Assembly (NCBI GenBank): GCA_026418905.1
Contig: JAOAAK010000032.1
Location: 1-64,000 of the forward strand
Origin: Bacteroidales bacterium
Lineage (GTDB): Bacteria > Bacteroidota > Bacteroidia > Bacteroidales > DTU049
Direction of reading: 5' to 3'
DNA: 64,000 nt
The notes under the pieces were generated by a model. That model was not told the origin of the DNA. It did not search any database and saw only the letters and a list, made by a program, of their open reading frames with translations. Positions 1 to 22,099 of this stretch are shown in pieces. Numbering within the stretch: the stretch's first letter is position 1; every line of letters begins with the position of its first letter. A program made the position numbers and the translations under genes.

Positions 1-3000
1 AGGACTTCGAAAGTGCGGTCTCCATCTTCACTTTCGTAGAGTCCGTAATAAATATTTTCGGCATTGTTGGCATAATACCACCTCTTATGCTCATGTGGAG
101 ATGGATAAGTTTGTTGTTTGATGACCAAGGGATTTTCAAAATGCTGTATGCAACGCACATGTCTAATGCGAATTGTCCTACCAGTGATGGGATTGGTGTA
201 TATGAGTCCTCCATCTTTTTCAGCATTTTTCAACATCTGTTCTAATGCTTTTTTATTATCGGAGATTCCTAGTTCATTTGCTAATTTACTTGCTTCATCC
301 TCAAATATTTTTTTGATAGCTGGATCGACGATTTGCTTTATATCGAGGTTGCGATCAACAGGTTCGCGTTTGACAATCTGGTACTCAAAATAACCATTCC
401 CATTTTCATCTCGTTTAAAAACTTTGATCTTCCCATAAAAAGTTTCTTTATGCAATTGCCCACGAACGGTATCACCGATCATATACTTGCCCTTATGAGG
501 TCCTTTTCTGATTCGTTTCTTGGTAAAAAGGAAAATTTTATGCCGCACAGGATGCACTACAAGGGTTTCCTTCTCGATCTTATTTCTTATCTGATTCAGT
601 ATTGTTTCGTTTGGTATTCGCGCAGAACTGAGAAGTCTTTTTAGTTCATGTTCATATTGCATTAGCATTGTATAATTTTCATCTGTCTCGTTTGCTGCAT
701 GAGTAATTAGCTTTCCTATTTCTTTGCATTTGGCGTAAGCTTCTAATATTTTCTTGAGCTGAGGTGGACTAGGAATAAGAGATAAAACAAGAGCATCAAT
801 GGCATGATGAGTGTGTTTGGTCCGATCTTTTGGGGATTTCTCCACACGAAGCTTTAGAATTTTGGCAAAATCGGCAACCACGGAACCCTTTTGAACTCTT
901 ACATCGTCGAACACCGTTTTAAGATAATGGAATGCGTATTTACTAATAAGTTGGGTTTCAGTAAGTTGTGCGTTCACAAACTGGGAGGAAACTTCTTCCA
1001 TTTCAAACCGACTTACTTTATTAGTCCAATAGTCCAATTCCATTTTCCAAAGATGTTTCTCAACAATACACTTGTTTTTTTCTTCGATGCTTCGGGCCCG
1101 TTTCGATTTGTTTTCCCAATATATGAGATGATGTCTGATTTCTTCAATCTTTTCTTTCCATGGTTTGATACGTTCAAGAATTTCGTCATGGTCCTTGCAT
1201 TGAGCAGGGATGCGGTTTTTCTTTATATTTCGATTGTAATCTTTAAAGCATACAGTCTTGTTGGCCAGACTGTCATCAAACGAAAGGGAATAAGGTATGG
1301 TATGTTCTATGTCAATTTTATCTTCGGAAAAAAGCTGAGTTAAAGAAATAGGTCTTCCTGTGTAAATACATATGGCTTGTTGTTCGAGCCAAAGTCTATA
1401 TTTCTCCAACACATTATCTTTTGCTTCTTTCAATTTATACCATAAAGATGGTCTAATTTTTTCAAAACTATTTTCTTTCCAAGAGAAATATGTAACTTCA
1501 GCATCTTTATTTTTGTCTTTCCGTGCTTGAGATTGTTTTTCATTAGGCTTATTCAAGCCAGTGAATTCCTCCCCTATGAGGGAAAAACACTGTTCGTACC
1601 ACAGGCGAAATTTATCTATGTCGTCATCATTATGGGGATTAGCTTTCAGGTGTTGATTCTCATTGATTAATTCATAAATAGCATGAGAAAATTCTTTGTT
1701 TTCTTCTTCGCGACGTTCCTGCCAAATTTTATATGCTTTTCGACGGTTAGCATCATTGAGTTCGCGAGGCACCTCGACGACAACGCGAGTATTACGATCC
1801 AGTTGGTCAGTCTTAATGAGATAATTGACCAGTTGCCTGAGTTCTTGCAATACTCTCAGAGCCATAGGGTTCCGCCAATATCCTGTTTTGGGACTTTGCA
1901 AGTAACACTTAGCATCTGGACCGGGTTGAACAGCCGGATAAATCTCACCTTGCGAATGATGATACATCTTATTCAATTGTCTATCGCTGAGGTTGAAATG
2001 TATCCTCAGATATTCTTTGATTTTATCCGTCAAGTTCGGACGAGCAAAGAACTGATGAGACGAGGTTTTTGAATAATCGTAAAGCAACTTCCCTACCTTT
2101 ACGACATAGTCATACTTGTTGTGATCATCTAAATTCTCCCATGTTTTTTCACCAAAATGCCTTTTGCAGTATTCTTCAACTTTTTCTCTTGCAAAAAAAT
2201 CGACAGTACTGGTCTGAATACGGTGTGGATAATCCGATATTAAAGCATTGGCAATGTTGTAAACGTGAAGATCCTTCTGATAATCTCCGAGCAAATTGCT
2301 TATCTCCTTTAAAAGCAAATCTTCATTTTGTTGATTGTATTGTTTTCCTAGAACGTAAGGTATGTTAGCTAAGAGTACAGATCTGTCGTATTCCCATCCT
2401 TTGGTGAGAAAATAATTTATTTTTCTTATGGCTTTGAGGCTAAAAGAAGCATAACCATCCTCCAATTCATGGAACCACTTGAGATAATGTTTAATTTGCT
2501 CATCGTTGAATTGGAATTTTTCTCTAGCAATTCTTTTGATTTCATCTTCATCATCCAGTTGAAAGATGACATGCCAAAGATCTTCCCAGGTATAATAGTT
2601 CTTACTGGACTGATAAGTTACATAGGATGAATTTTGTTTTTTGAGCCGTTTGATTGGCTCATGATATATTTTGTGAGTTTGCCAATCCTCACCAATAATT
2701 TTGGTGAGATAATAAATTGAAGGACAACCTGGCACGTCTTTATTTACATCATAATTCAACGTTATTTCTGCCTTGAATTCATTTTCGATGATTTTCTTGA
2801 CCTTTGCCAAAGACACTAAATTAGGTGTGATGAAAAGCTCATTGAAAATTTTTTCTTTGAGGTTCAAAGGCACGTCCACCCAAGAAGTACTATCAGTTTT
2901 ATAACGAATGTTGTTGAGAACTTGCCAGGCTCTGAAAATTTCGAATTCTGGACGACTTTTAGGGCACCGAGGTTTGTTTTTTTCCAGTAAACATTTACCG

Positions 3001-3902
3001 ACAAGTCCTTTTTGAGAACGTAGGGGTCGTTGCCAGAAAATCGTACATTTGGAAACATCAGTTGTGCCAAATATGTTCTTAAACTTCTCTTCCCATTCAC
3101 CTTTAAATTGGAACTCGAAAATCTTCTCAACTTCTTTGACCAACATCTTGCGTGTGACAAAAGGATGCAGATCATTTCGTATCCGTTTATATTTCAGATC
3201 TTTAAATTCCTGATGATTTTTTTCAGCATTAAAATACAGATGTAAATTATCTTCTGCTTCAGCCAGCAATTGCCCAACAGTCTTTTCTGTATCTCCTTCA
3301 ATTCCTAAACGTTTGAAAAGTTCTGATTTTTTTTCTTCCTCCGAACGAATTTTAAGATCCTCATCGGTTGCCTGGGCTGTTTTCTTACTGCTTTTAAAAG
3401 CACGGTGCTGTGCTATGTGATATAGAGCTCTACCTAGCATGTAACGATTTGAACTAATGCTAAAATCTAATTCATTTTCGACCAAAAATTTTCTTAGTTG
3501 ATAAGGGCTTCTGAAATCTGGCTTACCGTCACCATTAAAATCTAACTTTATCCATTTGTCAAAAGCTTCGTCATCGACTGGAAAGGTTCGTTTGAGATTC
3601 CCTTTTTTATCGTACGTGCACCAGGAAACAATACTTTCTTGCTTAATGGGACAATAGTTTGCTGCATGAAGCTTTTTGAGAGTTTCCCACAATCGGTATT
3701 TTCTAGCTTGGTATAGCCTACGCATAGATCGATATTTAGTTCGTTCAGCTGCTAAAGAATATTCTACGTTTTTATTTTCGTCAACCCCTTTTTCAAAAAC
3801 GATGACACCAAATTTTTCAAATTGCTCATGATTTTCTTTTTCATCGTTTCTGATTACCCATCCGATGGATGACTGGCCCAAATCTAGAGCAAAGGTTTTC
3901 AT
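1..3902 (-). CDS. cas9: Cas9 endonuclease, type II-C-like (C-terminus beyond window edge)
   Basis: RNA-guided DNA endonuclease of a CRISPR-Cas system. I translated the minus strand from the ATG at 3902 to base 3: 1300 codons are open without a stop, and the frame runs off the left edge. RuvC-I is at residues 1-17 (MKTFALDLGQSSIGW, Asp7), followed by an Arg-rich bridge helix near 52-78. RuvC-II is VVVEVPREL with Glu710. The HNH domain has IDIEHTIP with His867, then Asn881 and Asn890. RuvC-III is HHAID with His1032 and Asp1036. A late RGQLHKETFYG motif (1147-1157) marks the start of the WED/PAM-interacting part. All catalytic residues are present, so the protein looks active. From memory, family members of this group are about 1400-1500 residues, so perhaps 100-200 residues are missing. 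cas1 and cas2 are not visible; they would be expected to the left. Confidence 0.97.
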   Translation of the reverse strand, partial: MKTFALDLGQSSIGWVIRNDEKENHEQFEKFGVIVFEKGVDENKNVEYSLAAERTKYRSMRRLYQARKYRLWETLKKLHAANYCPIKQESIVSWCTYDKKGNLKRTFPVDDEAFDKWIKLDFNGDGKPDFRSPYQLRKFLVENELDFSISSNRYMLGRALYHIAQHRAFKSSKKTAQATDEDLKIRSEEEKKSELFKRLGIEGDTEKTVGQLLAEAEDNLHLYFNAEKNHQEFKDLKYKRIRNDLHPFVTRKMLVKEVEKIFEFQFKGEWEEKFKNIFGTTDVSKCTIFWQRPLRSQKGLVGKCLLEKNKPRCPKSRPEFEIFRAWQVLNNIRYKTDSTSWVDVPLNLKEKIFNELFITPNLVSLAKVKKIIENEFKAEITLNYDVNKDVPGCPSIYYLTKIIGEDWQTHKIYHEPIKRLKKQNSSYVTYQSSKNYYTWEDLWHVIFQLDDEDEIKRIAREKFQFNDEQIKHYLKWFHELEDGYASFSLKAIRKINYFLTKGWEYDRSVLLANIPYVLGKQYNQQNEDLLLKEISNLLGDYQKDLHVYNIANALISDYPHRIQTSTVDFFAREKVEEYCKRHFGEKTWENLDDHNKYDYVVKVGKLLYDYSKTSSHQFFARPNLTDKIKEYLRIHFNLSDRQLNKMYHHSQGEIYPAVQPGPDAKCYLQSPKTGYWRNPMALRVLQELRQLVNYLIKTDQLDRNTRVVVEVPRELNDANRRKAYKIWQERREEENKEFSHAIYELINENQHLKANPHNDDDIDKFRLWYEQCFSLIGEEFTGLNKPNEKQSQARKDKNKDAEVTYFSWKENSFEKIRPSLWYKLKEAKDNVLEKYRLWLEQQAICIYTGRPISLTQLFSEDKIDIEHTIPYSLSFDDSLANKTVCFKDYNRNIKKNRIPAQCKDHDEILERIKPWKEKIEEIRHHLIYWENKSKRARSIEEKNKCIVEKHLWKMELDYWTNKVSRFEMEEVSSQFVNAQLTETQLISKYAFHYLKTVFDDVRVQKGSVVADFAKILKLRVEKSPKDRTKHTHHAIDALVLSLIPSPPQLKKILEAYAKCKEIGKLITHAANETDENYTMLMQYEHELKRLLSSARIPNETILNQIRNKIEKETLVVHPVRHKIFLFTKKRIRKGPHKGKYMIGDTVRGQLHKETFYGKIKVFKRDENGNGYFEYQIVKREPVDRNLDIKQIVDPAIKKIFEDEASKLANELGISDNKKALEQMLKNAEKDGGLIYTNPITGRTIRIRHVRCIQHFENPLVIKQQTYPSPHEHKRWYYANNAENIYYGLYESEDGDRTFEV

Positions 3903-3926: not shown

Positions 3927-3964
3927 AGAAATAAAGCTTTTTAAAAAAAATTTTTTATAAATAG

Positions 3965-3994
3965 TTGTTGCTATTAAAAATTTTATTATATTTG
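3965..3994 (+). promoter_or_regulatory. promoter of the tracrRNA-like transcript
   Basis: TTG at 3965-3967 is followed after 19 bases by TATATTTG at 3987-3994, a full match to the Bacteroidota -33/-7 promoter. Transcription would start near 3999-4003, directly at the anti-repeat-like sequence, and run away from cas9. The inverted repeat TGTTGC (3966-3971) and GCAACA (3994-3999) brackets the promoter core. Confidence 0.65.
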
Positions 3995-3999
3995 CAACA

Positions 4000-4064
4000 G
4001 CGAATCACAATAAGGCTATAAGCCGAAGGATTCTTGCCCTTGCGCCTTGCGTGAGGGCTTTTTT
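4000..4064 (+). ncRNA. putative tracrRNA, divergent from cas9
   Basis: This is a short, promoter-to-terminator unit of about 65 nt on the strand opposite cas9. The 5' part GCGAATCACAA (4000-4010) is the reverse complement of TTGTGATTCGC, which resembles the conserved start (GTTGTGATTTGC, from memory) of type II-C repeats in Bacteroidota, so it is the likely anti-repeat. Then comes a nexus-like hairpin GGCT-ATA-AGCC (4014-4024), preceded by CACAATAAG as in the Neisseria II-C tracrRNA, and a 10-bp terminator hairpin with a T6 run. Position next to cas9, size and element order all fit a tracrRNA. No repeat array is in the window, so base pairing to the real repeat cannot be tested here. Transcript ends are inferred. 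Confidence 0.75.
4036..4064 (+). terminator. intrinsic terminator of the tracrRNA-like transcript
   Basis: Arms GCCCTTGCGC (4036-4045) and GCGTGAGGGC (4049-4058) pair over ten positions, two of them G-U, around the loop CTT, and are followed by six T on the plus strand. There is no T run on the minus strand, so it serves the plus-strand transcript and not mutS2, whose stop is at 4068. Confidence 0.8.
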
Positions 4065-4067
4065 ATT

Positions 4068-6443
4068 TTACTTAAAATGTACCATCGTAAAACCATCCTC
4101 GTTTGCATCGGAAGGAAAAGAAATATCTAGGATGTCCTGATATTGTCGGAGATAATCGCGGATGGCTTTTTTCAAAATACCGTAACCTTTTCCATGTATA
4201 ATTTGAAGAAATGGGACACGGTTAAGAAGAGCCCTATCAATTTTTCGGTCAACTTCCTGGAGAGCTTCTTCAACACGCATGCCTCTTACATCGACCTGTG
4301 TATCGATAAATGCAACGACATGAGAAGTAGATGTTACCGACGATCTTCTAACGTTGGGTTCGTCGATCTTTTCAAGTTCTTTGATGGAAACTTCCATGAT
4401 AAAACCGTTCATTTCGACATGAGCGACGTTCTTTTCAATGGAAATGATTTCACCTCTGTGTTGGGTTTCTTTGATTCTGACACGATCACCTGGATGGAAT
4501 TCTATTTGAAGGAGTTGTTCTTGCTCAAGAGGTCGTAGTGGTTCGTGAACGAGCTGCATGGGAGGTTTTTCAAACAATCGAGACTTTTCCTGCTCAAAAT
4601 TTTTTCGAATAGATTTTGTTTTCTCTTTGTTGAGGGCATTTTCTTTAACTTCTCGAATGGTCCTTTCTATTAGCCTTTGAGCATTGGCCAATAAGCGCTG
4701 AGCTTCACGTTCGGCTTGATGGATAATCAGCTCTTTTCTTTCTTGCAACTTTCTGTTCAATTCCTGATACTCTTTGATTAAATCGGCGACCATTTGTTCA
4801 GCTACTTCTATTTGTTTTTTTCGTTGTTCAAGATCTTTTTGCCATGCAATAAGCTGCTGAAACATGTCGGTGTAAACATCTTGCTGAGGATTCGTTTTAC
4901 TTCTAGCTAACTGAATTATTTCGGTGGGAAACTCAATTTTTGATGCAATTTCGAGACCATAAGATGAGCCGGGAAGCCCAATAAAAAACTCATAAGTAGG
5001 CTCCAGTTTTTCATGATCGAAAAGCATGGTCGCATTGATAGCACCTTGCTGGCTTGATGCCCACATTTTAAGATGTTCGAAATGAGTTGTTACTATGATA
5101 AGTGGATCTTTTTTAAGTAAGATTTCCAGGTATGCTTCAGCCAGCTTAGCTCCAATTTCTGGCTCGGTTCCCGTAGCTACCTCATCAATAAGAACGAGAG
5201 TGTCCTGATCGGAATGCTCATAAATTTCCTTCATTCTAATCAAACGTGACGTAAACGTACTAAGATCGTTTTCAATGGATTGGCGATCACCTATATCGAC
5301 AAGTATTTGACTGAACAAAGGAAATTGGCTATCTCCATCACAAGGAACAAGCAATCCGCATTGAAGCATCAGTTGTAGGAGTCCGACCGTTTTGATAACG
5401 ACCGATTTTCCCCCAGCATTAGGACCACTGATCACAAGAAGTTTGTAATTCTCACCTAAGGTCAACGTAAGAGGAACTATAGTTTTGCCTTTTTGTTTTA
5501 AAACCATTTCAAGCAGAGGATGTCGAGCATTTTTGATCGAAAGTATTTTTTCATGCGAAATTTGCGGAAGCACAGCCTTTTGCTCAAAAGCCATGCGTGC
5601 AGCGGCAAAAAAGAAATCGATCCATGAGATATCGAGAATAAGAGTCTCTAAAGCACTCCTTTCCTTCCTTACGTACGAAGTTAGTTCGGAAAGTATTTTG
5701 ATCATTTCTTTTCTTTCTTCACTTTCTAACATCTGAAGTTGATTATTCAATTGATAGATTGCCTGCGGCTCGACAAAAAGTGTCTGGCCAGTAGCGGAAA
5801 CATCTATGACTATACTTCGGGTGAGAGACTTTTTGTGAGGTGGAACAGGAATCACCATCCTGCCTTTTCGAAGAGTCGGTTGGACGTTCTCCTCGATGAT
5901 TTGACGGTCCTTCCAATATTTGAGAACTTCAAATAGTTTTTTTTCTATGTTTGAAACGAGATTGGCTTTTTGCTGACGAATGTGTTGAAGTTGAGTACTT
6001 GCCTTGTCTAAAATTTCTCCTTTCTCGTTTAAATGCCTGCCAATAATGTCCTGAAGATGAAAAGGTATCTTGTTCGGACTGAGCCATTGCTTAAAATTCT
6101 CACATTGATGTTTTTTAATCCACTCTAGGACGTCGCGATAAAAAATGAGGTGTTCGATTAAATTTAAAAAAGTTTCACCTTCCCAATAATGCAGTAAATC
6201 TTCAAGCTTTTGCAATTCGCCACTAAGGTCACTTCCATGAAAAGCCGGGAGTTGAAAACCTTTCGTGAGAATTTGATTTATTTCGTCTACGATCTTGAGT
6301 CGCCTCAGAAGTATTTTTTCCTCCGCGATAAGTTGCAATTCTTCAATATGGTTAATTCCGTATGGAGTACTTAAGTAAAATTTCAGACGATCTTTGATTT
6401 GATCAAAATGCAACAAGTTTTCCGTTTCTTTTACATTAAGCAT
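4068..6443 (-). CDS. mutS2: endonuclease MutS2
   Basis: DNA-binding ATPase of the MutS2 family, 791 residues, a usual length. The N-terminal core is followed by the ATPase with Walker A GPNAGGKS and a Walker B/signature region LVLIDEVATGTEPE; the signature is slightly altered from the common DELGSGTDP. A long charged coiled-coil linker leads to the C-terminal Smr domain (VDVRGMRVEEAL and HGKGYGILKKA), which carries the nuclease or RNA-binding function in relatives. MutS2 proteins act on branched DNA or collided ribosomes, depending on species, and not in classic mismatch repair. The gene is four bases downstream of the glycosyltransferase at 6448 and may be cotranscribed with it. Confidence 0.93.
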   Translation of the reverse strand: MLNVKETENLLHFDQIKDRLKFYLSTPYGINHIEELQLIAEEKILLRRLKIVDEINQILTKGFQLPAFHGSDLSGELQKLEDLLHYWEGETFLNLIEHLIFYRDVLEWIKKHQCENFKQWLSPNKIPFHLQDIIGRHLNEKGEILDKASTQLQHIRQQKANLVSNIEKKLFEVLKYWKDRQIIEENVQPTLRKGRMVIPVPPHKKSLTRSIVIDVSATGQTLFVEPQAIYQLNNQLQMLESEERKEMIKILSELTSYVRKERSALETLILDISWIDFFFAAARMAFEQKAVLPQISHEKILSIKNARHPLLEMVLKQKGKTIVPLTLTLGENYKLLVISGPNAGGKSVVIKTVGLLQLMLQCGLLVPCDGDSQFPLFSQILVDIGDRQSIENDLSTFTSRLIRMKEIYEHSDQDTLVLIDEVATGTEPEIGAKLAEAYLEILLKKDPLIIVTTHFEHLKMWASSQQGAINATMLFDHEKLEPTYEFFIGLPGSSYGLEIASKIEFPTEIIQLARSKTNPQQDVYTDMFQQLIAWQKDLEQRKKQIEVAEQMVADLIKEYQELNRKLQERKELIIHQAEREAQRLLANAQRLIERTIREVKENALNKEKTKSIRKNFEQEKSRLFEKPPMQLVHEPLRPLEQEQLLQIEFHPGDRVRIKETQHRGEIISIEKNVAHVEMNGFIMEVSIKELEKIDEPNVRRSSVTSTSHVVAFIDTQVDVRGMRVEEALQEVDRKIDRALLNRVPFLQIIHGKGYGILKKAIRDYLRQYQDILDISFPSDANEDGFTMVHFK

Positions 6444-21974: not shown

Positions 21975-21982
21975 TAATTTTG
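21975..21982 (+). promoter_or_regulatory. -7 element of the SRP RNA gene
   Basis: TAATTTTG matches TAnnTTTG just before the mature SRP RNA 5' end. No TTG at the expected -33 distance is visible. Confidence 0.5.
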
Positions 21983-21983
21983 C

Positions 21984-22083
21984 ATTGGGTAAGACCTATG
22001 CAACCAGCTCCCACCAATCCCCCCAGGTCCGAAAGGAAGCAAGGGTCCGTGGTCGTAGCGGTGTGATGTAGGTATCTTACCCA
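21984..22083 (+). ncRNA. ffs: signal recognition particle RNA (4.5S type)
   Basis: RNA component of the SRP that targets membrane and secreted proteins. The apical domain carries the universal signature CCAGGTCCGAAAGGAAGCA (22023-22041), with the GGAA tetraloop-type loop and asymmetric internal loop. The ends TTGGGTAAG near 21985 and CTTACCCA near 22075 pair to close a hairpin of about 100 nt, the length of bacterial 4.5S RNA. A -7 element precedes it. Confidence 0.95.
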
Positions 22084-22099
22084 TTTTATTTTTACAAAA

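What the first reader, a model, noticed from the sequence alone, without database searches (positions are those of the whole stretch)
1..3902. Complete catalytic set of a Cas9 in a frame that runs off the window
The minus strand from 3902 to 3 is open for 1300 codons and has all RuvC and HNH residues (Asp7, Glu710, His867, His1032, Asp1036). The gene is unbroken, so this is a functional-looking type II effector. A truncated-looking region with many overlapping short frames would be missed by a start-to-stop gene caller.
Basis: partly seen in the sequence, partly recalled or inferred. Interest (0 to 1): 0.78.

Follow-up and report, generated by a model that had tools for sequence, protein, structure and literature searches.

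The report
Ordinary Bacteroidota type II-C Cas9 locus
The window's left edge holds most of a normal bacterial CRISPR-Cas9 gene, with its guide-RNA partner (tracrRNA) gene beside it and its matching CRISPR array at the end of another contig of the same genome; it is a distant but ordinary member of a well-known immune system, cut by the end of an assembled contig.

Summary
Window 3902..3 (minus strand) is open for 1300 codons, matches the Cas9 model TIGR01865 (E 4.5e-118), and has D7, E710, H867, H1032 and D1036 at the stated positions, invariant in 14 relatives. Base 1 is the physical end of contig C32, so the missing C-terminus (126-217 residues in relatives) cannot be read.

The surroundings make it a type II-C locus of the Bacteroidota kind. 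The CRISPR array lies at the end of another contig, C23: 47-nt repeats, 30-nt spacers. The 12-nt antirepeat AGCGAATCACAA, followed by C or T, occurs only three times in 2.1 Mb: once in the tracrRNA and twice in the C23 repeats. cas1 and cas2 are not in the assembly; relatives encode them between cas9 and the array, that is, in the gap. Nearest Cas9s are 42-44% identical.

Verdict: real, functional-looking in what can be read, ordinary; a deep-branching new member of a known kind.

The parts
3..3902 (-). cas9, 1300 codons, 3' end cut by the contig end (about 126-217 codons missing by comparison with relatives)
   Evidence: TIGR01865 4.5e-118; HNH_4 and Cas9_a; catalytic residues D7, E710, H867, H1032/H1033, D1036; contig end
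3999..4064 (+). predicted tracrRNA gene: antirepeat AGCGAATCACAA (3999-4010), nexus AAGGCTATAAGCCGAAG, terminator hairpin GCCCTTGCGCCTTGCGTGAGGGC followed by six Ts
   Evidence: 24-nt core found once in the window, 0 expected; same element at the same place in 14 of 14 relatives; folding z = -3.77; terminator pairs co-vary; duplex with the C23 repeat -25.7 kcal/mol, shuffles mean -10.8, best -19.0
3987..4000 (+). TATATTTGCAACAG: Bacteroidota -7 box (TAnnTTTG) just upstream of the tracrRNA, shared as a 14-nt block with the spacer-side end of the C23 repeat in crRNA sense; overlaps the antirepeat by 2 nt
   Evidence: only occurrence in the window; longest shared block of 14 nt. Promoter role is inferred
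4068..6443 (-). mutS2 (MutS_V + Smr), neighbour, not part of the system
   Evidence: Pfam MutS_V 3.9e-30, Smr 7e-18

Best explanation
This is the left part of a chromosomal type II-C CRISPR-Cas system of the Bacteroidota kind: tracrRNA gene (divergent), cas9, then (in an assembly gap) the rest of cas9, cas1, cas2 and most of an array with 47-nt repeats, whose far end is on contig C23. crRNAs would be transcribed towards the cas genes, each spacer followed by GUUGUGAUUCGCU... which pairs with the 12-nt antirepeat of the tracrRNA. Cas9 would be loaded with this dual guide, recognise a PAM through its unassembled C-terminal domain, and cut one strand with HNH (H867) and the other with RuvC (D7, E710, H1033, D1036). 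Shown here: gene, residues, tracrRNA sequence and predicted structure, array, repeat-antirepeat match, locus order in relatives. Inferred: transcription, cas1/cas2 in the gap, adjacency of C32 and C23, PAM recognition and cleavage.
For: Cas9 profile matches and residues. tracrRNA element in the same place and orientation in 14 of 14 relatives, with co-varying terminator. Array at the end of C23 with 47-nt repeats and 30-nt spacers. AGCGAATCACAAY occurs three times in the whole genome, all in this system. The relatives have cas1- and cas2-sized frames after cas9 and, in most, an array on the fetched stretch; confirmed by profile as type II Cas1 and Cas2 in L002, L003 and L006. Only one HNH_4 protein in the genome, so one candidate effector for the array. 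Tree: 100/100 support for the clade holding the window and 14 relatives.
Against: No Cas1, no Cas2 above cut-off and no Cas9 C-terminus in the contig ends. The first bases of C32 do not recur in the other contig ends, so its adjacency to C23 is inferred. The two readable spacers match nothing exactly in IMG/VR. No expression data.
Confidence: 0.93

Rival explanations
1. The locus has lost cas1 and cas2 (an effector-plus-array remnant that can no longer acquire spacers) or the 3' end of cas9 is broken, so the contig end hides a decayed locus.
For: Cas1 absent from a 97%-complete assembly; no Cas2 above cut-off; missing C-terminus not found at contig ends.
Against: The assembly stops inside cas9 and resumes inside the array, exactly the stretch where relatives encode the rest of cas9, cas1 and cas2; their absence is what a gap would give. 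The 1300 readable codons show no decay and the repeat-antirepeat match is kept.
Confidence: 0.06
2. The frame is a chance long open frame or a non-Cas9 RuvC/HNH protein such as IscB.
For: None found.
Against: TIGR01865 at 4.5e-118, Cas9 alpha-helical lobe match, at least 1300 aa, a tracrRNA gene and an array.
Confidence: 0.01

Closest known systems
Type II-C CRISPR-Cas of Riemerella anatipestifer (PMC5006608)
   Same: tracrRNA antirepeat (16 nt, TGAAAGCAATTCACAA) upstream of cas9; cas9, cas1, cas2 beside the array; 47-nt repeat
   Different: Antirepeat here is AGCGAATCACAA (12 nt contiguous); sequence-level comparison with Riemerella Cas9 not made here; cas1 and cas2 not assembled
Type II-C systems of Flavobacterium psychrophilum and F. 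columnare (PMC10309648, which also cites Hoikkala et al. 2021)
   Same: Type II-C; tracrRNA-cas9 arrangement; repeat-encoded promoter proposed; TAnnTTTG promoter named (for cas9)
   Different: There the repeat promoter motif named is TTG 35 bp upstream of the spacer; here a TATATTTG box lies 7 bp before the spacer
cas9 loci of Bacteroidales genomes G048, G216, G345 and Prolixibacteraceae L006
   Same: Same Cas9 clade, same tracrRNA core, position and orientation; cas9 followed by cas1- and cas2-sized frames (profile-confirmed in L006, L003, L002) and an array
   Different: Only 41-44% identical in Cas9; antirepeats are longer or carry an internal loop

Membership tests
Cas9 (type II effector) | Cas9 profile match over the curated cut-off | tested here: met
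   TIGR01865 396 bits, cut-off 100
Cas9 (type II effector) | RuvC I-III and HNH catalytic residues | tested here: met
   D7, E710, H867, N881/N890, H1032/H1033, D1036
Cas9 (type II effector) | Complete C-terminal PAM-interacting domain | not testable with these tools
   Contig ends at base 1; relatives extend 126-217 aa further
Type II-C CRISPR-Cas system | tracrRNA gene with antirepeat matching the repeat | tested here: met
Type II-C CRISPR-Cas system | CRISPR array | tested here: met
   C23 from about 3940 to 4151: three repeats, the outermost degenerate, two full spacers and a partial one
Type II-C CRISPR-Cas system | cas1 and cas2 next to cas9, no csn2 or cas4 | tested here: inconclusive
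   Not assembled here; in relatives L002, L003 and L006 type II Cas1 and Cas2 follow cas9. csn2 and cas4 were not searched in the own genome
Type II-C CRISPR-Cas system | RNA-guided DNA cleavage | not testable with these tools
   Needs a bench assay

The most novel reading that the evidence does not exclude
Each CRISPR repeat carries its own copy of the start region of the tracrRNA gene (shared 14-nt block TATATTTGCAACAG with a Bacteroidota -7 box), placed so that each crRNA would begin near the first base of its spacer and need no 5' trimming, and pairs with an unusually short 12-nt contiguous antirepeat. Repeat-encoded promoters are already described for other type II-C systems, so this would be a variant.
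Probability: 0.3. Interest if true: 0.3.

Novelty: new member of a known kind. Interest (0 to 1): 0.15.

Why it matters
Little beyond cataloguing. It adds a deep-branching Cas9 (at most 44% identical to anything found here) with its tracrRNA and repeat, enough to write down the guide RNA; the PAM domain is missing. It also shows how a locus split by an assembly gap can be rejoined by the repeat-antirepeat match.

Tried and rejected
A first array search with the relatives' repeat end (GCAAWTCACAAC) found nothing, because the own repeat reads GCGAATCACAAC; the looser TCACAAC pair found it. An array-like signal on C6 has two short similar stretches about 80 bp apart with no CRISPR-like repeat and was set aside as a probable repeat-bearing gene. 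Rfam gave no tracrRNA hit; the weak PyrR-leader match at 3947-4067 (29.8 bits, below its cut-off of 54) is probably owed to the hairpins. Both spacers were searched exactly in IMG/VR without a match. Cas9s on plasmids are only about 26% identical. Weak Cas2 matches on C3 and C9 (14-15 bits) lie in longer frames and were rejected.

Full report
Observation. The minus-strand frame 3902..3 is open for 1300 codons and is a Cas9: TIGR01865 at 4.5e-118, HNH_4 at 8.5e-19 and Cas9_a at 1.5e-7, PADLOC Cas9 models, and solved Cas9 structures over the HNH region.

The end of the frame. The window is bases 1-64000 of contig C32 (83,448 bp) of a 47-contig, 2.11-Mb, 97%-complete assembly. Base 1 is the contig end. 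Relatives run on for 126-217 residues. That C-terminus is not in the other contig ends, Cas1 is nowhere in the assembly and Cas2 gives only weak matches of 14-15 bits in longer frames.

Relatives. Cas9s of this kind (E up to 1e-60) occur in 20 of 393 sampled genomes of the same order, the window's own included, and in five named contigs. The best identity is 42-44%. In L002, L003 and L006 cas9 is followed by profile-confirmed type II cas1 and cas2, with a transposase-like gene between cas9 and cas1 in L006. In the 11 order-level relatives fetched, cas1- and cas2-sized frames follow cas9, and nine of them have an array on the fetched stretch. Repeats are 45-47 nt except in L051, which has 36 nt.

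tracrRNA. In all 14 relatives the sequence just upstream of cas9, read on the opposite strand, holds TCACAA(T/C)AAGGCTATAAGCCG(A/C)AG (L051 has one difference) followed by a terminator hairpin and a run of Ts. The window has the same at 3999-4064 plus. The 24-nt core occurs once in 64 kb with none expected. In the consensus structure six terminator pairs are kept through changes on both sides, and the element folds better than all 200 shuffles, z = -3.77.

Array. A search of the whole genome for two TCACAAC ends 50-80 bp apart gave one place, at the end of the 4,151-bp contig C23 (the reversed control pattern also matched once). Read in the cas direction it shows two full repeats of 47 nt (CCTGTTGCAAATATAGTCAAAGAACTTTCTTGATAGCGAATCACAAC; one copy with a single change), two 30-nt spacers, and a last degenerate repeat bordering unrelated genes, the nearest an S51 peptidase. 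The antirepeat AGCGAATCACAA followed by C or T occurs three times in the genome: twice in these repeats and once in the window's tracrRNA. The repeat-tracrRNA duplex is -25.7 kcal/mol; 300 shuffles average -10.8 with a best of -19.0, and the own repeat scores better than every relative's repeat against this tracrRNA. C32 and C23 are therefore very probably the two sides of one locus, with the cas9 end, cas1, cas2 and most of the array in the gap. This adjacency is inferred, not read.

Placement. A maximum-likelihood tree puts the window Cas9 on a long branch inside a clade with 14 Bacteroidota Cas9s (100/100), apart from the Cas9s of three genomes of its own family. That suggests these loci move between lineages, as is known for CRISPR systems; it was not tested further.

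Literature. The same layout is described for Riemerella anatipestifer type II-C (47-nt repeats, a 16-nt antirepeat upstream of cas9; PMC5006608), and repeat-encoded promoters are proposed for Flavobacterium type II-C arrays (PMC10309648). In the present locus the block TATATTTGCAACAG is shared between the tracrRNA start region and the spacer-side end of the repeat, which fits a repeat-encoded start but is only a sequence resemblance.

Mechanism. By established knowledge of type II-C systems, crRNA and tracrRNA would pair through the repeat and antirepeat, load Cas9, and direct HNH and RuvC to cut the two strands of DNA that matches the spacer next to a PAM. None of these steps was tested here beyond the sequence features that they need.

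Verdict. A real, functional-looking but ordinary type II-C locus, cut by an assembly gap; a new member of a known kind.

Noticed in passing
window 3987-4000 and L142 (C23) about 3940-4151: A 14-nt block TATATTTGCAACAG with a Bacteroidota -7 box is shared, in transcription sense, by the tracrRNA start region and the spacer-proximal end of the repeats.
   Followed up: partly
L146 (G010:C65:68000-77706): A genome of the same family has a Cas9-like frame of 1790 aa, unusually long for a Cas9; it sits on a very long branch in the tree.
   Followed up: no
L144, L145, L146: The three same-family genomes with Cas9 matches carry Cas9s from another clade than the window's, so the locus is probably exchanged between lineages.
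   Followed up: partly
L006 12658-13365: A REP-associated tyrosine transposase-like gene (below its curated cut-off) sits between cas9 and cas1; several other relatives also have an extra frame of about 130-380 aa there.
   Followed up: no
window 21980-22086 +: Bacteroidales small SRP RNA (90.6 bits), which supports the order-level origin of the window.
   Followed up: no
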